Assembly: GCF_000801955.1 (NCBI RefSeq)
Contig: NZ_JSZO01000003.1
Span: 1-64,000 of the forward strand
DNA from: Ralstonia sp. A12
Lineage (GTDB): Bacteria; Pseudomonadota; Gammaproteobacteria; Burkholderiales; Burkholderiaceae
Direction: 5' to 3'
Length of the DNA stretch: 64,000 nt
Under the pieces are notes generated by a model. It worked only from the letters and a program-made list of their open reading frames with translations, ran no database searches and was not told the origin of the DNA. Below, one piece after another: positions 38,896-49,326 of this stretch; within the stretch, counting starts at the first letter, position 1; each line of letters starts with the position of its first letter. The translations under genes were made by a program, and so were the position numbers.

Positions 38896-40974
38896 ATGAA
38901 CATCAGAGAGTCGAGCAGCAATCTGCTGCTTTACCGCGAACGGAGCCTGGACGACCTGGCAACCGATACCTCTGCGGTGCGGGCCCTTGCGCAAGCGGCG
39001 ATCAACGTGGAACTGTTCACCATCCCGCTGTACATGACTGGCCTGTATTCGGTGTTCGGCACCCACGAAATCAACGCGCAGGACATCAGCTACTACCAGG
39101 GGCGTCGCTGGCCGGGCATGGCCCCGACGGCCCAGCCGGCTACGCGCGAAGACAAGGCGTTCAATCTGGTGTTCAGCGTGTTCATCCAGGAGATGCTGCA
39201 TCTGCAGATGGCGGCCAACATCTGCACGGCGATTGGCGGTACGCCGTCGTTCACCAGTCCCGCGCTTCAGCAGCCCGACCACGGCTGGTCTTGCTACGGC
39301 TCGGAACAAACGAAGATTCCGCACGTGCTCAATCTGCTGGACACGACGCGCTATCACGACACCAAGGTCAATCTGGGTGCGCTCAACAAGAACACGCTTG
39401 ACCTCTTCTGTGCCATCGAGCAGACCGAGAAAGATGCGATGGACGTTCTGCTGCCGGACAAGCGCCGGGACTACTTCCCGACCGTGCCGTTCAACGGTTG
39501 GAACCCGGGCAAGGGCGAGACGGACCTGCCGATGTTTGGCTCCATCGGCCACATGTACGAGTGCTATGCGCAGTACCTGCGGATCGAATACACCGATGGC
39601 CAGACGCTTTGGCAGAAGCTGTTCGACCCGAACTGCGTCCAGCAGGACATGTTCAACACCACGGTCAAGGGGCATCCGCGGCGCGAGTACCCACGCTTTG
39701 AGACCGTCCTGAACAAGGAAGACCTGGCTGATCCGGTGAAGGCGTTCAACAAGGTCATCACCTTCATGTCGGCCATCACCGATCAGGGCGAAGGCAGCCA
39801 GGTCCCGCTGGGCCGTTCGCTGCTGCGCTATCAGCTTGGCCCGACGCAGCCTGCTCCGCTGTCGCTGACAGCCGTCAAGGACAAGTACCGCGAGGACCGG
39901 CAGTCCCTCGAGGTCGACTATCCCTCGTACACCGCGAGTGGCCAGGATGCGCCGTCAGCCGACGCCGAGGCCAGGTACCACTATGCGGCCGAGACCCACT
40001 TGGAGCGCTTCGAGGCGTTGCGCCACGAGTTGCCGCACATCATGACCTGGGAGAAGTGGCACGCCGATCCCCAGAACACGTGGACGGCAGAGATGCTCAC
40101 CAGCCCGGACTACGACCCGGCCAAGGATTCGCAATCGATTCCGGCACCGCAGGCGATTGCCGATGCGCTGAACCGGCTGAAGCAGCAGGGTGCGACGGAA
40201 TACGCAACCCTCAGCAAGGTGGCGGTCGGTGCCATTGCGGGCATCACGACCGTACTCGACGCGTACTGGAAAGTCGCCTCGACCACCTTCCCGTATCCGT
40301 CGATGGTTGGTTCGGGCGATCGTGTCTCGTTGTGCTGGGCTGTCTTCGGGCAGGCACCGGACCTCGGCTTGGGCATTGGCACGCCGGATGACCGGCAGCT
40401 CTACCACGCCTGCCAGGCGCTTGACCTGAACGGTGACGACCAGGCCAGTTGTGCCGCTATCGAGATCTACCACAGCTGCCGCGGCTCCAATGGCTGCAAG
40501 GCGCAAGGCGGCTGTGGCTTCGCCCAGCTCGACACCGGAGGTGGTTCCTGTGGGCATAGCAGCAGCGCTGCCACCACAGCCACGGCCGGGCAGACCACCG
40601 GGCCGGCGCCTTTCAGGGTGCACGGCCGCAAGAGCCGCAGCAATGTCGTGGACCAGAATCTGTGCGGCGGCCTGACCCCGGCACCGGGGCCGTACAGCGC
40701 GCCCAGTGACAACCGCTGCGGCAGCTTGGGAGGCTGCGCGGTACCGATCTCCGCGTCGCAGCTCTATCCGGAGGGCGGCACCATGCTGGTGTATGACTTT
40801 GTCGGGCCGCAGCATACCAAGGAGAAGATCGGTGAAATGACCTTCGCGCTGGGTGATTCCGTCTACGACAAGGCATGGCAGGCCTACAAGGAAGTCATGG
40901 CCCACCGCGGCAAGCCAGTTGGCGATCCGCCGAAGCCGACTGACCTGCGCATCGCTCTGCCGCCGTCGACCTGA
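38896..40974 (+). CDS. VioB-like ferritin-domain protein with a cysteine-rich C-terminal tail
   Basis: A 692-residue protein. Residues about 25-260 form a ferritin-like domain of the VioB/iminophenyl-pyruvate dimer synthase kind. Candidate iron ligands are Glu39, Glu99 with His102 (QEMLHLQ), Glu175 or Glu178, and His219 with Glu222. Residues 480-614 hold ten cysteines, including YHSCRGSNGCKAQGGCGF at 525-542 and NRCGSLGGCA at 606-615. That spaced Cys/Gly pattern is typical of peptides modified by MNIO enzymes. There is no signal peptide. The start follows GGAGACAGACGG. An MNIO gene follows after 96 bases, then DUF2063. It may be enzyme and substrate in one chain. Confidence 0.82.
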   Translation: MNIRESSSNLLLYRERSLDDLATDTSAVRALAQAAINVELFTIPLYMTGLYSVFGTHEINAQDISYYQGRRWPGMAPTAQPATREDKAFNLVFSVFIQEMLHLQMAANICTAIGGTPSFTSPALQQPDHGWSCYGSEQTKIPHVLNLLDTTRYHDTKVNLGALNKNTLDLFCAIEQTEKDAMDVLLPDKRRDYFPTVPFNGWNPGKGETDLPMFGSIGHMYECYAQYLRIEYTDGQTLWQKLFDPNCVQQDMFNTTVKGHPRREYPRFETVLNKEDLADPVKAFNKVITFMSAITDQGEGSQVPLGRSLLRYQLGPTQPAPLSLTAVKDKYREDRQSLEVDYPSYTASGQDAPSADAEARYHYAAETHLERFEALRHELPHIMTWEKWHADPQNTWTAEMLTSPDYDPAKDSQSIPAPQAIADALNRLKQQGATEYATLSKVAVGAIAGITTVLDAYWKVASTTFPYPSMVGSGDRVSLCWAVFGQAPDLGLGIGTPDDRQLYHACQALDLNGDDQASCAAIEIYHSCRGSNGCKAQGGCGFAQLDTGGGSCGHSSSAATTATAGQTTGPAPFRVHGRKSRSNVVDQNLCGGLTPAPGPYSAPSDNRCGSLGGCAVPISASQLYPEGGTMLVYDFVGPQHTKEKIGEMTFALGDSVYDKAWQAYKEVMAHRGKPVGDPPKPTDLRIALPPST

Positions 40975-41070
40975 GCGGCGCCGCGTTGCCGCGCATGCGC
41001 CCTGCCTTGGTTGGCGGGGCGCTGTGTTGGCTCGACTCGACTTCACCCGACAAGCCGTCTTCATCTTTCT

Positions 41071-42072
41071 ATGCGTGTCCAACGACTGGGTTTGCCCAAT
41101 CTCGGCTTTGGCGTTGGCCTGCGGACCACGCACCTTCCGCACATTCTGCGCCACGGCCCCGGCGTGGACTGGTTCGAGATCATCAGCGAGAACTTTATCG
41201 ACCACTACGGCTACGCGCGCCACGCACTGGAGCGCATCCGCGCCGAGGTGCCGATCGTGATGCACGGCGTGTCGCTGTCGATTGGCAGCACCGATCCGCT
41301 GAACCGCGACTACCTCGCCAAGCTCAAGCAACTGGCCGATGACATCCAACCAGCCTGGGTTTCCGATCACCTGTGCTGGACGGGCGCGGCCGGCGTGAAC
41401 TCGCACGATCTGCTGCCGCTGCCCTTGACCGAAGCCAGCTATCGGCACGTGCGGCAGCGCGTGGAAGCCGTCCAGGAATTCCTGCGGCGGCCACTGGTGC
41501 TTGAGAACCCCAGCAGCTATCTCGAGTTTGCTGGCGCCACCATGGCCGAGTGCGATTTCCTGGCGCGGCTGGCGCGCGAAACCGGCTGCGGCCTGCTGCT
41601 CGACGTCAACAACGTCTACGTGTCTGGCCACAACCATGGCTTTGATCCGGAGGCGTATCTGCGCACGTTGCCGCCCGAGCACATCGTGCAGCTTCATCTG
41701 GCTGGCCCGACCGACTGCGGCGACCTGCTGGTCGATACGCACGACCGCGCGGTGCCGCTGCGTGTCTGGCAGCTCTACGCGCTGGCGCAGCAGCTGTGTG
41801 GAGCGACGGTGCCCGACGATGCGCCGATGCCGCGAGGCGCGGTTTCCACCTTGCTCGAATGGGATGCCGACATTCCCGACTATCCGGTCTTGCTGGCCGA
41901 GTTGGACAAGGCCCGCACCGTGCTCCGCGGCGAGATGCCGTCGCCGGCCGATGCACCGATGCATGACGTGGTGAGCGGGCAGGCTGGCGCCACGGCAGGC
42001 GGGACGACCGTGTATTCGACGCCGCTGGATTTCCAGGTGAGGGAATGCGATGCCATCACACCCGCTCCATGA
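41071..42072 (+). CDS. MNIO (DUF692) multinuclear iron oxidative enzyme
   Basis: A 333-residue TIM-barrel enzyme of the family that includes MbnB and TglH, which use two or three irons to rearrange cysteines or other residues in peptides. All the usual metal-ligand blocks are here: HGVSLSIG (His65), SDH (His100), LENPSSY (Glu145), LLDVNN (Asp178, Asn181), GHNHGF (His187/His189), QLHLAG (His209), DTHD (Asp222, His224) and EWD (Glu263). It should therefore be active. The start at 41071 has no clear ribosome site; the frame opens 60 bases earlier. Its end overlaps the DUF2063 gene by 23 bases. Confidence 0.92.
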
Positions 42073-42913
42073 TGTTCAACGCTGGCTGATGACCGTGATG
42101 ACCGCGCCCGGCGGTGCGGACCACGGTCTGACGCTGGCGCTGCATCGTTTCGGCTTCACGGCCGACGACCTGATTCGCGCGGGCGGTGTGGCGAGCCCGC
42201 TGCGGCGGCTGGGCGTCTATGCCGACGGCTACCTGCAGCGTCTGTACGACTGCCTGTCCGCCGACTACCCCATGCTCGAACGCGTCATGGGGCGCGACGT
42301 GTTTGGCTTTTTCGCCCGTGCCTACCTCTGGGAAAATCCATCCGGATCGACCACCCTCTACGATCTGGGCATCGGCTTTCCCGATTTCCTGGCGCGACAT
42401 CTGCCTGCGGGCACCGATCCTGATGACAGCGTCGCGCTGCTGCCGATCGAGCTTGCGCGCCTGGAGCGGGCGCGTACCGAGGTCTTGCGTGCACGCGGGA
42501 TGGAGCAGGCGAGCGCGGCGAAACCCGCCGCTCATCTGCTGGGGCTCGCGCCGGACCCTGCAATGACCTGGGCTGTTCCACACTGCGTGAGGCTGCTCGC
42601 GCTCAGGCTCGACCTGATCCCGTTCTGGCAGGCCATGGAAGTCGACGATGCGGTGCCGGCCTGCCCCGGGATCGCGCCCAGCTACGTGGCGGTCAGCCGC
42701 GTGCGCTACCGAGTCTCGATGTATGCCCTGAATGGCTGGCAATACGCGACGCTGTGCGCGCTGCGCGACGGACGCCCCCTCGCTGCGGCGCTGGATGCAA
42801 TGGCACGGACCGGTATGACGCCGGCCCAGGCTCTGGCCGAATGGATGCTCTGGTCTTCGGCGGCGCAGTCGCTAGGGTTGCTCGCCAACGCGGCAGATCT
42901 CCCGCCGAGCTAA
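42050..42913 (+). CDS. DUF2063 (HvfC/BufC-like) partner protein
   Basis: A 287-residue protein of the family labelled putative DNA-binding (DUF2063). Its N-terminal domain contains the typical [29 protein letters not shown] block near residues 50-85. In MNIO gene clusters this protein binds the precursor peptide and presents it to the iron enzyme, like MbnC. It starts inside the MNIO gene (23-base overlap), so the two are translationally coupled and probably form a complex. A terminator follows. Confidence 0.9.
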
Positions 42914-42930: not shown

Positions 42931-42966
42931 AAAACCCCGGCAGCTTCGGCTGGCCGGGGTTTCTTG
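42931..42966. terminator. Bidirectional terminator between DUF2063 and cusF
   Basis: A stem with ACCCCGGC / GCCGGGGT continues inward to AGC-TTCG-GCT, giving a nearly unbroken hairpin capped by a TTCG tetraloop. AAAA flanks the left and TTTCTT the right, so it can serve both converging units. Confidence 0.9.
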
Positions 42967-42978
42967 TTGGGACGGCGA

Positions 42979-43326
42979 TTACTGCTTGTGCATCTCAACC
43001 ACAGTCGGCCGCCCGTCCACCGTATCGAACGTCGCCATCACGTGATCGCCTTCCTTGAAGTTCTTGAGCGCGGCCTTGTCCTTGACGGCAAACGTCATCG
43101 TCATGGCGCCCATGTTCAGGTTGTCGATGTCGCCGTGCTTGAGCGTGACCTTGCCCGTGTCGGGGTAGACCTTGCGGACCTCCGCCGCGACGGGCTTGGG
43201 TGCTTGCTTGGACGGATTGGCCTGGGCGGCGGGCTTCATGTCCATGCCTTCCATTGGCGTGGCGGCAAACGTTACGGGCGATGTGGCCAGCAGCAGGGTG
43301 AAAGCCAGAGCGGATGCGTATGTCAT
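42979..43326 (-). CDS. cusF: Periplasmic copper-binding CusF-like protein
   Basis: A 115-residue protein with a signal peptide (cleavage near VTFAA) and a CusF-type beta-barrel (about 45-115). The copper/silver ligands are carried in [20 protein letters not shown], with the Met-x-Met pair and the preceding His. It passes metal to the CusBA pump. GAGGT precedes the start. The ATG overlaps the cusA stop (ATGA). It is last in the operon. Confidence 0.92.
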
Positions 43327-46300
43327 CGTGAGACCTCGTGCGAATCGGGTTGAGCGTGGGGTTGGGAAGGGGAGGATGCGCCGCGCCTGCGCAACAGCAG
43401 ATAGACAGCGGGAACAACAAACAGCGAGAGCAGGGGCGCCGTGACCATGCCGCCGACCATGGGGGCGGCAATGCGCTGCATGACTTCGGAGCCGGTGCCG
43501 TGTGACCACATGATCGGAATCAGGCCGGCCAGGATCACGGCCACCGTCATGGCCTTCGGGCGCACGCGCAGCACGGCACCTTCCTGGATGGCGTCGAGCA
43601 GCGCTTCGGTGCTGGTCTGGCCGCGTTCCTGACGCTGGTCCCACGCCTGCTTGAGATAGAGCAGCATGATGACGCCAAACTCCGCTGCCACGCCCGCGAG
43701 CGCGATGAAGCCCACCACGCCCGCCACCGACAGGTTGTAGCCCAGCCCGTACAGCAGCCAGAACCCGCCAATCAACGCCAGCGGCAGGGTGCCCATGATG
43801 AGCAGCGCCTCGTCGATGCGGCCGAACACCAGATACAGCAGCACGAAGATGATGAGCAGCGTGAACGGCACCACCACCTTGAGCTTGGCGGTGGCGCGTT
43901 CCAGGTACTCGAACTGGCCCGACCAGCTGAGTGCGTAGCCTGCGGGCATCGGTACCGCCTTGGCGACGGCCGCTTGCATGTCGCGTACCGCCGAGCGCAG
44001 ATCGCGCCCGCGAATGTCGACGTACACCCAGCCGGAGAGCCGTGCGTTCTCACTGCGCAACATCGGCGGACCTTGCACGACACGGATGTCGGCTACATCC
44101 GATAGCACGATCTGCTGGCCCCGGTCGGTCACGATCGGCAGGCGGCGCAGTTGCTCCACGGAATCCCGGTAGTCGCGTGGGTAACGCAGGTTGATCGGGA
44201 AGCGCGCCAGCCCATCGACGACTTCGCCCACGTTGTCGCCGCCGATGGCAGACGACACGATGTTCTGCACGTCCTCAATGTTCAGACCGTAGCGTCCGGC
44301 GGCCACGCGGTTGATGTCGACGTCGATGTAGCGCCCGCCCGAGAGCCGCTCGGCCAGCGCCGAGGTGACGCCGGGCACCGTCTTGACCGCTGCCTCGATC
44401 TGCGTGGTGAGGCGGTCGATCTGCTGCAGGTCCGTGCCCGCCACCTTGATGCCGACCGGGCTCTTGATGCCGGTGGCCAGCATGTCGATACGGTTGCGGA
44501 TGGGCGGCACCCAGATGTTGGACAGGCCCGGCACCTTGACCACACGGTCCAGCTCGTCGACCAGCTTGTCGGGCGTCATGCCGGGCCGCCATTGGTCGCG
44601 CGGTTTGAACTGGATGGTGGTCTCGAACATCTCCATTGGCGCTGGGTCGGTGGCGCTGTCCGCGCGGCCGGCCTTGCCGAACACGCTGGCAACTTCGGGC
44701 ACGGTCTTGATGAGCCGGTCGGTCTGTTGCAGCAACTGCGCCGCCTTGCCGGCCGACAACCCGGGCAGTGCCGACGGCATGTAGAGCAAGTCGCCTTCAT
44801 CCAATGGCGGCATGAACTCGCCGCCCGTGCGCAGGATTGGCCAGGCCGTTGCCGCCAGCAGCACGAGGGCAATCGCCACCGTCGTCTTGGGATACGCCAG
44901 CACGCGAGCCAGCACCGGCTGGTACATGCGGATGAGCCAGCGGTTGAGCGGGTTCGACTGCTCGCTCGGGATGTGTCCACGAATCAGGTAACCCATCAGC
45001 ACCGGCACCAGCGTGACCGACAGCCCGGCGGCTGCCGCCATCGAATACGTCTTGGTAAAGGCCAGCGGCGAGAACAGCCGCCCCTCCTGCGCCTCCAGCG
45101 TGAACACCGGGATGAATGACAGCGTGATGATCAATAGCGAGAAGAACAGCGCCGGCCCGACCTCCGCAGCAGATTCGCCGATGATGCGCCAGCGCTCCTG
45201 CCCGCCAAGGTCACGCTGCAGATGCGCCTCGTGCCAGCGCTCCAGGTGCTTGTGCGCGTTCTCGATCATCACCACGGCTGCGTCCACCATCGCACCCACC
45301 GCAATGGCGATACCGCCCAGCGACATGATGTTGGCGTTCACACCCTGATAGCGCATCACCAGGAACGCAGCCAGCACGCCCAGCGGCAGCGAGACGATGG
45401 CCACCAACGCAGAGCGCAGATGGAACAGGAACACCACGCACACCAGCGCCACGACGATGAATTCCTCGATCAGCTTGTGCGTGAGGTTGTCCACCGCGCG
45501 GTGGATGAGTGCGGAGCGGTCGTAGACGGGCACGATCTCCACGCCCGCCGGCAGGCTCTTCTGCAGCGTGGCGAGCTTGGCCTTGACGGCATCGATGGTC
45601 TCCAGCGCGTTCTTGCCGGAGCGCATCACGATCACGCCACCAGCGACTTCGCCCTGACCATTCAGCTCGGCAATGCCGCGCCGCATCTCGGGCCCGAGCT
45701 GGATGGTGGCGACGTCGCCCAGCCGCACGGCGATGCCGGTGTCGCTCGTTGCCAGTGGAATCTGCCGGAAGTCGTCGAGCGTCTTCAGGTAGCCGCTGGC
45801 GCGCACCATGTACTCGGCCTCGCCCAGCTCCAGCACGGAGCCGCCGGTTTCCTGGTTGGCGCCCTTGAGCGCCGCCAATACCTTGGCTTGCGACAGGTTG
45901 TACGCGCGCAGCTTGTCTGGCTGCAGCACCACCTGGAACTGCTTGACCATGCCGCCCACCGACGCGACTTCTGCCACGTTCGGCAACGCCTTCAGCTCGA
46001 AGCGCAGGAACCAGTCTTGCAGCGCCCGCAGTTGCGCGAGATCGTGGTGGCCAGTCTTGTCGACCAGCGCGTATTCGTAGACCCAGCCCACGCCCGTCGC
46101 ATCCGGCCCCAACGCCGGCTTGGCCGCCGCCGGCAAGCGTGACTGCACCTGGTTCAGATACTCCAGCACGCGCGAGCGCGCCCAGTACAGGTCGGTGCCG
46201 TCCTCGAACAGCACATAGACAAACGAGTCCCCAAAGAACGAATAGCCGCGGACCGTCTTGGCGCCCGGTACCGACAACATCGTGGTGGTGAGCGGGTAGG

Positions 46301-46496
46301 TGACCTGGTTCTCGACGATCTGCGGCGCTTGGCCGGGCAGCGGGGTACGGATGATGACTTGCACGTCCGACAGATCGGGCAGCGCATCGAGCGGCGTGCT
46401 GCGTGCCGCCCACAGTCCCCACGCCGTTAGCAAGACGGTGGCGAGCAGCACCAGGAAGCGGTTGCGGATGGAAGCGAAGATGAGGCGCGCGATCAT
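43323..46496 (-). CDS. cusA: Copper/silver efflux RND pump
   Basis: A 1057-residue inner-membrane RND transporter of the heavy-metal subgroup, driven by the proton gradient. The heavy-metal signature [20 protein letters not shown] lies near residue 37. Two large periplasmic loops and about 12 spans are evident, and the fourth-span motif [17 protein letters not shown] is intact. The CusF and CusB neighbours argue for Cu(I)/Ag(I) rather than Co/Zn/Cd. It shares 4-base ATGA overlaps with both flanking genes, so subunit synthesis is coupled. Confidence 0.95.
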
Positions 46497-48025
46497 GGTT
46501 TGCCTCCCGCATCACCGGTCAGTTGCACCGAAGAGAGGACCGCCATACCGTCCTTATCCAGATGGAAGCGGAAGTGCACGCGGTCACCCGGCTTCAGGCC
46601 CCTGGGCAAGCCATTGGGGGGCGAGGCAAAGTCCATCGTCATCGCGCCCCATTTCAGCGAGGGGATCGGACCATGGGAGAGCGTGAGCCCGTCTCTGTTC
46701 ACGGCTTCGATGCGGCCGATGCCTTCGTGCTCGGTGGTGGCAGCGGCGGGTGCGGATGCTGCTGACGGCGGCGTCATCCGTTCCGTGGTGCCGCGCAGGC
46801 TGGCCTCGGAATCCACCAGGAATTGGCCGGAGGTGACGACCTTCTGCCCGGCCTGCAAGCCCTGCAGTACCTCGACCTTGCCCTCAGCCTCGCGCCCGGT
46901 GCGGATTTCCGTGGGCACGAAGCCGGTCTTGCCACCATCCACCATCACGACGCTGCGCTCGCCGGTGCGGATCACAGCTTCGGACGGGATCAGCAGCGCT
47001 TCCTGGTCCAGACCGCCATCGAACCGCACGGTGGCAAACATGCCCGGCACGAGTCGCCTATTGGGGTTGGGCAGCACGATGCGGACCTTGATCGTGCGCG
47101 TGGCCGTATTCACGTCAGGCAGGATTGCGTCGACCTTGCCTGCGACCGGTTCCGTCAGGCCAGCAGCCGATACCTTGACCGGTGCGCCTGGCGCCACCGT
47201 TCGCATTTGCGCTTCCGGCACTTCTGCAATGACCCAGACGCGGCTGAGATCAGCCAGCCGGAACAGCGTCATCCCCGGCGAGACCGTCATGCCGTCACGC
47301 ACGGCAACTTCTGTGACGAAGCCGTCGATCGGGCTGGTGATCGCCAACGCCGGCTGCAGCTTGCCCGAAGTGCTGACGGCGCTGATCTGGCCCGCCGTCA
47401 TGCCGGCCTGCAGCATGCGCGCCTTGGCAGCACCTGCGAGATCGGACTGACCGTGCGCGGCTTGGCGCGATACCGCTAGGTATTCCTCCTGCGCCGCCAC
47501 CCAATCCGGCGAGTACAGCGAGACCAGCGTCTGCCCACGCCGCACCGGATCAAACATTGCGCGCACCGACACCTGCTGTACGAACGCGCTCGTGCGTGCC
47601 TGGATGACTTGCGCGCTGCGCTCGTCCACGGTCACATTGCCCGGCGCTTCCAGCACGCTGCCCAGGTGGCCAAGCTGGGCCTCAGCAGTGCGGATGCCCA
47701 GGTTCTGCACGACGCGGCTGTCGACGGTGACGCCACTGCCGCCTGCATCGCCATCTGCGTAGACGGGCGTGAGCTGCATGTCCATGAAAGGCGACTTGCC
47801 CGGCTTGTCAAAGCGCTGGCCGGGCACCATCGGGTCGTGCCAGTACAGCACTTTCTTGCCGGTTTGCGGATCGATGTCGCCTGCCTTGAGGCCGGTCGAG
47901 TTCGATGCTGATGTTGTGACCAGGGACGATTGCTGGCCGCGTGACAGGCCGATGCGGTAGCCGCCATAGGCCACCGCGCCAACCAGCAATGCACCCGCCA
48001 CCGTGGCGATTAGCGTTTTGTTCAT
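46493..48025 (-). CDS. cusB: Copper efflux adaptor with fused CusF domain
   Basis: A 510-residue membrane-fusion protein. After an N-terminal anchor comes a heavy-metal-binding domain ([20 protein letters not shown]), then the barrel-sandwich and hairpin domains of the CusB/HlyD fold. The C-terminal 75 residues are a second CusF-like domain ([18 protein letters not shown]). Such CusB-CusF fusions are known, but here a separate cusF gene is also present. The start at 48025 is set by the ATGA overlap with cusC; the longer frame is a shadow. Confidence 0.93.
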
Positions 48026-49326
48026 TGAAGGCTCCCCGTTGCGGGTTCGGTCTGGGCGGTGGGCAGTGGCACGAGGAAGGCGAGATCGGCCCACAGCTTG
48101 GCCGTCTTGGCTTCCAGCGTCAGGCGTTCCTGCGCGGTATCGATGGCGCGGTGGTTGGCTTCGGCCACGGCCGAGAGCGTGCCGGTGTTGGCGCGATAAG
48201 CCGTTAGGGCCGCGTCCGCCTGCGCGTTGGCCAGTGGCAGCGTTGTCTCTTCGTAGCGCTTGAGGCGGTCGAGATTGCGTTGCAGCTCGGTCAATCGGGT
48301 CGCGACCATGGCTTGCGTGTTGCGTCGGAGGACTTCCGATTTGGCGCGCGCCTCCTGTGCCTGTGCCAGTTTGGCGGCCACCTCTCGGTCTTGCCGATTG
48401 CCCTGGTCCCACGGCACCGGGAAGCTGACGTTGAGCGAGCCCATGTTGGAGTACGCCGCGCCGCGCTGGCTATACATCAGCTCGACCGTCACGTCCGGCT
48501 TCTTGGCCTCAGCCGCCGCGCGAATTTCCGATTCCGCCAGCGCCACGTCACGTTGAGCAGCGGCCACTTCCGGCACGGCGTCGAATGCGTCTGCCGCAAG
48601 GCGCTGCGTGGATGCGGGGACCTCCAGTGGCGGGCGGTCGCCCAGCGGACGATGCGCAGCGGGACCAATCCAGCGTTCCAGGGCCACCGTCGCCATCTCG
48701 ACGGTGGAGCGATTTTCATCCTGGCGGTCGTGCAGCTTCTGGACCTCCAGATCAGCGGCCAGCACGTCAGCGCGTGTGCCGCGACCGCTTCGGTACGCGG
48801 CCAGTGCGGCCTGGCGCGCCAGTTCGAGCGGGTGTCCGTGGTGGCCGAGCAGCACGCCGGTCTGCTCGGCATACCAGCGGTCCAGCCACGCGGCGACGGC
48901 GTTGCGCTGCACCTCGGCAAGGCCGGCATTGCGGCGCGCTTCGGCTGCGGCGGCTTCGGCGGTGTAGCGGTCAGCCTTGGCACGGCGCTTATCCGCACGC
49001 GTGAACTCCTGCATCACGCTGATGGAGCGCTGGGTCATGGAGTCCCGGCTGAGCGAGAACTGGTCGGATTTGTTGAGCGGAACGCTATCGAGCCCGAGCT
49101 TGACCACCGGGTCCGGCAACTGGCCGGCGGCGATGGCCATTTCATTGGCGGCCTGAATGGGTGCGCGGGACGTTTCCGCGTCGGCAGAGCGGGCCGACGC
49201 GAGGCCGATCGCCTCTTGTATGGAAAGCGTGTCAGCGGGCTGGCTGTACGCCAATCGACTGCTGACGAGCAGAACAGCGGCGAGCGCAAGCCAGCGCCCA
49301 CCGCATGGGGAACAACGCGAAAGCAT
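48022..49326 (-). CDS. cusC: Outer-membrane efflux channel of the CusCBA system
   Basis: A 434-residue TolC-family protein with a signal peptide (cleavage near LAYSQ), two long alpha-helical hairpin repeats and an alanine-rich coiled-coil core. It forms the outer-membrane exit duct for the CusBA complex. GGAGGT sits before ATG 49326. The stop overlaps cusB by four bases. A small metal-binding-like protein is encoded 71 bases upstream on the same strand. Confidence 0.9.
   Translation of the reverse strand: MLSRCSPCGGRWLALAAVLLVSSRLAYSQPADTLSIQEAIGLASARSADAETSRAPIQAANEMAIAAGQLPDPVVKLGLDSVPLNKSDQFSLSRDSMTQRSISVMQEFTRADKRRAKADRYTAEAAAAEARRNAGLAEVQRNAVAAWLDRWYAEQTGVLLGHHGHPLELARQAALAAYRSGRGTRADVLAADLEVQKLHDRQDENRSTVEMATVALERWIGPAAHRPLGDRPPLEVPASTQRLAADAFDAVPEVAAAQRDVALAESEIRAAAEAKKPDVTVELMYSQRGAAYSNMGSLNVSFPVPWDQGNRQDREVAAKLAQAQEARAKSEVLRRNTQAMVATRLTELQRNLDRLKRYEETTLPLANAQADAALTAYRANTGTLSAVAEANHRAIDTAQERLTLEAKTAKLWADLAFLVPLPTAQTEPATGSLQ

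What the first reader, a model, noticed from the sequence alone, without database searches (positions are those of the whole stretch)
38896..42913. A ferritin-like protein with a cysteine-rich tail, coupled to MNIO and DUF2063
Seen: the 692-residue ferritin-like protein carries ten cysteines in residues 480-614, in Cys/Gly patterns such as YHSCRGSNGCKAQGGCGF and NRCGSLGGCA. The next two genes are an MNIO enzyme with intact metal ligands and an overlapping DUF2063 partner. Known: MNIO plus DUF2063-type partners modify cysteine-rich peptides (methanobactin, bufferin and related systems), whose precursors are usually short separate genes. No short precursor is visible here. Inference: the tail of the ferritin-like enzyme is the substrate, so a modified, perhaps metal-binding, tail would be built onto an oxidative enzyme. 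This would be an unusual use of the machinery. The locus also lies directly beside a convergent copper-efflux operon.
Basis: partly seen in the sequence, partly recalled or inferred. Interest (0 to 1): 0.9.

Follow-up and report, generated by a model that had tools for sequence, protein, structure and literature searches.

The report
Ferritin-like enzyme carrying bufferin-like segment
A bacterial ferritin-fold protein carries, in a floppy internal stretch, a cysteine pattern like that of small copper-binding peptides, and in every relative whose neighbouring DNA could be read it is followed by the two proteins that chemically modify such peptides, so this machinery appears to have been turned to a large enzyme-like protein.

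Summary
In detail: window 38896-42913 encodes a 692-aa PF12902 ferritin-like protein with ten Cys in residues 480-614, an intact MNIO (BufB type) and an overlapping DUF2063 partner. The trio is a conserved operon. In 64 of 64 loci with readable context (window included) MNIO and partner lie directly downstream; one further contig ends at the gene. All 60 aligned close members keep seven Cys of the segment. 22 of 22 tail-less PF12902 controls had no MNIO nearby. No recurrent short precursor and no credible head-less copy of the segment was found in the samples searched. The segment is not a C-terminal tail: it is predicted disordered (498-616) before a folded C-terminal piece. Its CxGxNxCK pattern and C-x5-C-x5-C spacing resemble BufA2 bufferins (profile score above 150 of 150 column shuffles; single-sequence scores weak), and its MNIOs form one clade beside BufA2 MNIOs. 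The head keeps four Glu and two His suited to a dinuclear metal site. Best reading: the MNIO pair modifies this segment in cis on an enzyme-like protein, probably making thiooxazoles that bind metal. Chemistry and function are untested. The copper-operon neighbour is not conserved.

The parts
38896..40974 (+). 692-aa ferritin-like protein (PF12902 head, disordered Cys segment, folded C-terminal piece)
38992..39801 (+). PF12902 ferritin-like domain, residues 33-302
39010..39999 (+). span of the conserved putative dinuclear-site residues E39, E99, H102, E175, E299, H368
   Evidence: tail+ (65) E39 64, E99 64, H102 65, E175 65, E299 63, H368 63; tail-less (22) 22, 22, 22, 22, 21, 22
40387..40743 (+). 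Cys-rich segment, residues 498-616, predicted disordered
40471..40521 (+). BufA2-like core motif HSCRGSNGCKAQGGCGF, residues 526-542
   Evidence: H-x-C-x3-N-x-C-x3-G/A-C-G pattern in 61 of 62 segments
40708..40752 (+). second motif DNRCGSLGGCAVPIS, residues 605-619
   Evidence: 62 of 62 segments
40762..40971 (+). C-terminal folded piece, residues 623-692, ending in PPST
41071..42072 (+). MNIO enzyme, bufferin maturase (BufB) type
42050..42913 (+). PME1 partner: DUF2063 plus RRE-fold domain
42942..42961 (+). terminator-like hairpin after the operon (consensus match only; 3 found in the region, mean 2.1 in shuffles)

Best explanation
A dedicated MNIO plus PME1 pair, of the bufferin/captophorin type, modifies Cys residues in a flexible internal segment of a ferritin-fold protein that stays in the cytoplasm (no signal peptide by inspection). 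Shown by sequence: a three-gene operon conserved in order across Beta-, Gamma- and Alphaproteobacteria; invariant Cys motifs inside a segment predicted disordered; remote likeness of that segment to BufA2; an MNIO clade specific to this protein among those compared; a partner with an RRE-like fold; and a conserved Glu/His set suited to a dinuclear metal site in the head. Inferred: PME1 docks the segment and the MNIO oxidises Cys of the CxGxNxCK/GGC motifs, most likely to 5-thiooxazoles as in bufferins. The modified segment binds Cu(I) or another soft metal and stays attached to the head, a dinuclear (Fe or Mn) ferritin-like oxidase or catalase-like enzyme, as a built-in metal or redox site that buffers, senses or feeds it.
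Against: No modification, metal or activity has been measured. The window segment itself hits no Pfam or NCBIfam bufferin model, the BufA2 match covers about 31 columns, and the median BufA2 HMM score of the 62 segments is just 1.5 bits, hardly above that of the heads (0.7). There is no signal peptide by inspection, although the survey links PME1 partners to exported precursors (PMC12452194). The FonBC MNIO did not process an NACKG-type sequence (PMC13097082), so the site chemistry may be family-specific. Copper genes are not recurrent neighbours. The head's activity is unknown.
Confidence: 0.7

Rival explanations
1. The MNIO pair builds a catalytic, protein-derived cofactor for the ferritin-like enzyme from the Cys segment rather than a metal-buffering site, in the way LodB-like proteins are proposed to mature LodA-like quinoproteins (PMC4417212, passages).
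For: The substrate is joined to a fold with a conserved dinuclear-type residue set; the segment lies between two folded parts and is not positioned for release; the C-terminal end is strongly conserved in the 60 close members.
Against: The segment resembles BufA2 metallophores, and Sphingomonas members expand it with CGxPxP repeats, which suits binding capacity better than a single cofactor. Two distant members lack the PPST end.
Confidence: 0.25
2. The Cys segment is a giant-leader RiPP precursor: the ferritin-like part is carrier and leader, and the modified Cys peptide is cut out.
For: The protein occupies the precursor position of the operon, and most described MNIO substrates are peptides (PMC12452194).
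Against: The segment is followed by a folded, conserved C-terminal piece, so two cuts would be needed; no protease or exporter was seen to recur beside the operon (a coarse test without annotation of all clusters); the head's putative active-site residues are conserved.
Confidence: 0.08
3. The Cys segment works unmodified (Zn, Fe-S, Cu or disulphide), and the MNIO pair serves another substrate encoded elsewhere.
For: No modification has been measured; this genome also holds a DUF2282-type bufferin precursor.
Against: That precursor has its own MNIO and partner; the Cys segment was seen only with the adjacent pair wherever context could be read; the MNIOs form their own clade.
Confidence: 0.08

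Closest known systems
Bufferin 2 (BufA2, Cys-Lys captophorin) operons
   Same: Gene order substrate-MNIO-DUF2063/RRE partner; related MNIO; CxGxNxCK motif with C-x5-C-x5-C spacing.
   Different: The substrate is a 692-aa ferritin-fold protein without a signal peptide (by inspection), with the motif inside it; the BufA2 peptides seen are roughly 83-130 aa. The window segment has no NCBIfam BufA2 hit and the G096 one is below the cut-off.
Long or fused MNIO substrates of PMC12452194 (TIGR04222 membrane proteins; Buf1|Cytochrom_C|FGE-sulfatase; MerC|bufferin)
   Same: Cys motifs presumed to be modified on larger proteins.
   Different: Those described are membrane proteins or fusions with a bufferin signature. 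The word ferritin does not occur in the main text of that paper; its supplements were not read.
CC_0557 ferritin-like protein (3HL1) and tail-less PF12902 proteins
   Different: The tail-less controls have no Cys segment and no MNIO nearby; three of them follow GMC oxidoreductase genes. The chain of 3HL1 is 317 aa.
Manganese catalases (6kk8, 2cwl, 2v8t)

Membership tests
Bufferin/captophorin biosynthetic cluster (MNIO-PME1) | MNIO of the bufferin maturase type | tested here: met
   NCBIfam NF050167 MNIO_BufB 335.3 bits, cut-off 310; putative ligand residues invariant in 59 of 59
Bufferin/captophorin biosynthetic cluster (MNIO-PME1) | PME1 partner with DUF2063 and RRE domains | tested here: met
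Bufferin/captophorin biosynthetic cluster (MNIO-PME1) | order substrate gene - MNIO - PME | tested here: met
Bufferin/captophorin biosynthetic cluster (MNIO-PME1) | Precursor recognised by a bufferin model (BufA2 or DUF2282) | tested here: not met
   Window segment: no bufferin hit. G096 segment: BufA2 18.4 bits, cut-off 60. Remote likeness only by profile
Bufferin/captophorin biosynthetic cluster (MNIO-PME1) | Sec signal peptide on a short precursor | tested here: not met
   692 aa; N-terminus MNIRESSSNLLLYRERSLDD has no hydrophobic core by inspection. No predictor was run
Bufferin/captophorin biosynthetic cluster (MNIO-PME1) | 5-thiooxazole on Cys, Cu binding | not testable with these tools
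   needs mass spectrometry, UV at about 302-305 nm and metal binding
PF12902 ferritin-like family | Pfam match and fold | tested here: met
PF12902 ferritin-like family | conserved Glu/His set suited to a dinuclear metal site | tested here: met
   E39, E99, H102, E175, E299, H368 conserved in tail+ and tail-less proteins. Residue conservation only; geometry and metal binding were not tested
VioB/RebD iminophenyl-pyruvate dimer synthases | dimerisation of indole-3-pyruvate imine | not tested
   link to PF12902 recalled only; no NCBIfam hit of that kind

The most novel reading that the evidence does not exclude
An MNIO/PME1 pair has been recruited as a dedicated maturation system for an enzyme: it turns Cys residues of an internal bufferin-like loop into a thiooxazole metal site that works in cis with the dinuclear metal centre of a ferritin-fold oxidase. 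This would extend MNIO chemistry from peptide natural products to building a post-translational metal centre in a large protein.
Probability: 0.45. Interest if true: 0.9.

Novelty: new variant of a known kind. Interest (0 to 1): 0.76.

Why it matters
MNIOs are known for modifying small peptides; that they may also act on bona fide proteins is put forward as a suggestion in the survey PMC12452194 (section 21 read). Here is a family with a conserved dedicated MNIO, a clear candidate segment, controls that lack both, and compact three-gene operons, so the question becomes directly testable. If true, it links copper-type peptide metallophores with a ferritin-fold enzyme in one polypeptide.

Tried and rejected
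Copper operon as part of the system: rejected. Searching the window CusA and CusB against 64 other loci gave one weak CusB-like hit, in L013.

Separate short precursor: a signal-like, at-least-4-Cys ORF within 1.5 kb was found in 3 of 58 loci (L005, L023, L044), in unrelated sequences. The heuristic is crude. The neighbour clustering is a weak test: GC-rich shadow ORFs hid the MNIO in many loci, and the widest clusters after the three genes are minus-strand ORFs over the operon, which I take for shadow ORFs (20 loci, 4 genus labels; 16 loci, 6 labels; 16 loci, 3 labels). The next reach only 1-3 labels (for example an ABC-transporter-like ORF in 9 loci, 3 labels). Not all clusters were annotated.

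Two independent gains of the Cys segment: the G096 head falls among tail-less heads (long branches), but one clade is not rejected (p-AU 0.328). Not claimed.

Free-standing segments: in 369 genomes of the window's class 3 had a match, and in 385 of the class of G256 4 had one. One of these, G992, is a weak match (E 5.7e-4) in a stop-interrupted stretch without head, MNIO or partner; the other six lie in ORFs of about 650-720 aa with the head. At most 12 candidates per genome were scored. In plasmids only the two Pseudoalteromonas records matched.

CDGSH-type Cys in the C-termini of the tail-less controls L082 and L095 is a different motif by inspection (motif name recalled) and has no MNIO in the stretch.

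A SigF-like and a Fur-box pattern (both recalled) were sought within 300 bases upstream of the 60 members and not found. A search for the word bufferin matched 'buffering' and was useless. Searches gave nothing of use. No paper listed names a ferritin-like MNIO substrate in the parts I saw; supplements were not read.

A second Pseudoalteromonas record (H2) was not fetched; its MNIO and ferritin matches lie side by side by coordinates.

Full report
What is there. Window 38896-42913 holds three genes on the + strand: a 692-aa protein with a PF12902 ferritin-like domain (residues 33-302), an MNIO above the NCBIfam BufB cut-off, and a DUF2063 protein. The 692-aa protein has ten Cys between residues 480 and 614.

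Conservation. A scan of genome contigs gave 59 relatives, found by six peptide patterns, four of them upstream of the Cys segment and none made of its Cys motifs. In 58 of 59 the MNIO and the DUF2063 partner follow directly on the same strand; in the 59th (L029) the contig ends at the gene. The record titles include Chromobacterium, Janthinobacterium, Massilia, Undibacterium, Caulobacter, Sphingomonas, Vibrio, Pokkaliibacter, Motilimonas, Marinobacterium and Ferrimonas. Seven Cys of the segment are invariant in 60 of 60, within the motifs HxCQ, CA, HxCxGSNxCxxxGGCGF and NxCxxxGGCAVPIS. Five more distant members were found: G096, G530, G518, G1010 and a Pseudoalteromonas replicon (L094). All five have MNIO and partner downstream. 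That is 64 of 64 loci with context, the window included. In G518 the middle Cys of the core motif is replaced by His.

Controls. Among 398 genomes of the window's phylum (unnamed handles; Pseudomonadota by inference), 17 had a PF12902 match. Three loci have the Cys segment (window, G256, G096) and all three have MNIO and partner. Eleven lack the segment and none has an MNIO or partner in the stretch fetched (6-16 kb). The remaining three matches are short bacterioferritin-like proteins. Of 12 plasmid-collection loci examined, chosen from the 27 and 164 matching records, one (L094) has the segment and the MNIO pair and 11 have neither within about 5 kb. Together the split is 4 of 4 against 0 of 22, p about 7e-5 by counting arrangements, relatedness not corrected. 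No credible free-standing segment was found; one weak stop-interrupted match in G992 stands alone.

What the segment resembles. 28 of the 30 BufA2 loci fetched with the NCBIfam model gave peptides of the form HCxGxNxCKGxxxCxTxxNxCKGxNxCKGxGF. The ferritin-protein segment has the same CxGxNxCK pattern and C-x5-C-x5-C spacing. Profile comparison scored 37.0 (probability 79%), against a maximum of 23.8 in 150 column-shuffled controls and 20.6 for the reversed profile. Single-sequence scores are weak: 5 of 62 segments reach 10 bits, while none of 60 heads and none of 1302 shuffled or reversed segments does; the median is 1.5 bits against 0.7 for the heads. The G096 segment hits the NCBIfam BufA2 model at E 0.0019, below its cut-off. 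The MNIO tree, of 27 chosen ferritin-associated MNIOs, 27 from BufA2 loci and one DUF2282-type MNIO as outgroup, places the 27 ferritin-associated ones in one clade (SH-aLRT 98) beside 26 of the 27 BufA2 ones. The DUF2282-type MNIO of the same genome has its own 88-aa precursor, a partner and a DoxX-like gene (named by inspection). At four other plasmid MNIO loci examined, of 23 rows listed below the two Pseudoalteromonas, the gene in the precursor place is an 84-95-aa six-Cys peptide. The 692-aa protein therefore sits where a bufferin precursor normally sits.

Mechanism. Known from papers: MNIO-PME1 pairs make 5-thiooxazoles with loss of 4 H per site and absorbance near 302-305 nm (PMC13097082, passages); the partner is needed for the active mixed-valent diiron state of HvfB (PMC13419390, passages); [quoted passage not shown] By inference, the pair here modifies Cys of the internal segment on the folded ferritin-like protein, giving a built-in soft-metal site. 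The FonBC enzyme did not accept an NACKG-type site (PMC13097082, section 13), so the chemistry need not be identical. Whether the site buffers metal, regulates the head or takes part in catalysis is open.

Limits. Nothing chemical has been measured. There is no signal peptide by inspection, whereas the survey links PME1 to exported precursors. The copper operon beside the window locus does not recur. The operon was not found in 15 of 15 other genomes of the genus searched. In the searches made and in the two main texts searched for the word ferritin I found no ferritin-like MNIO substrate; of these papers I saw listings, passages and the sections named, and no supplements.

Noticed in passing
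G000:C4 about 39730-42140 (L108 5732-8138): Second MNIO locus in the same genome: an ordinary Buf1-like set with an 88-aa DUF2282-type precursor, MNIO, partner and a DoxX-like gene (precursor, partner and DoxX named by inspection).
   Followed up: partly
L097, L103, L105, L099: Tail-less PF12902 proteins follow GMC oxidoreductase genes in L097, L103 and L105, and precede ebo-type genes in L099; the partner of this ferritin-like family may differ with the tail.
   Followed up: no
L044 and other Sphingomonas members: Several Sphingomonas proteins expand the Cys segment with CGxPxP repeats, up to seven in L044.
   Followed up: partly
window 42979-48412 (-): Copper RND operon with a small CusF-like protein (MGAMTM) and a CusB-like protein that also ends in a CusF-like stretch, by inspection.
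   Followed up: no
window 38896-42913: The ferritin-like gene was not found in 15 of 15 other genomes of the genus searched, which suggests horizontal gain or repeated loss.
   Followed up: partly
L148 6707-8674 (-): Member with the middle Cys of the core motif replaced by His (GSNLHKGQGGC) and a C-terminus without PPST.
   Followed up: no
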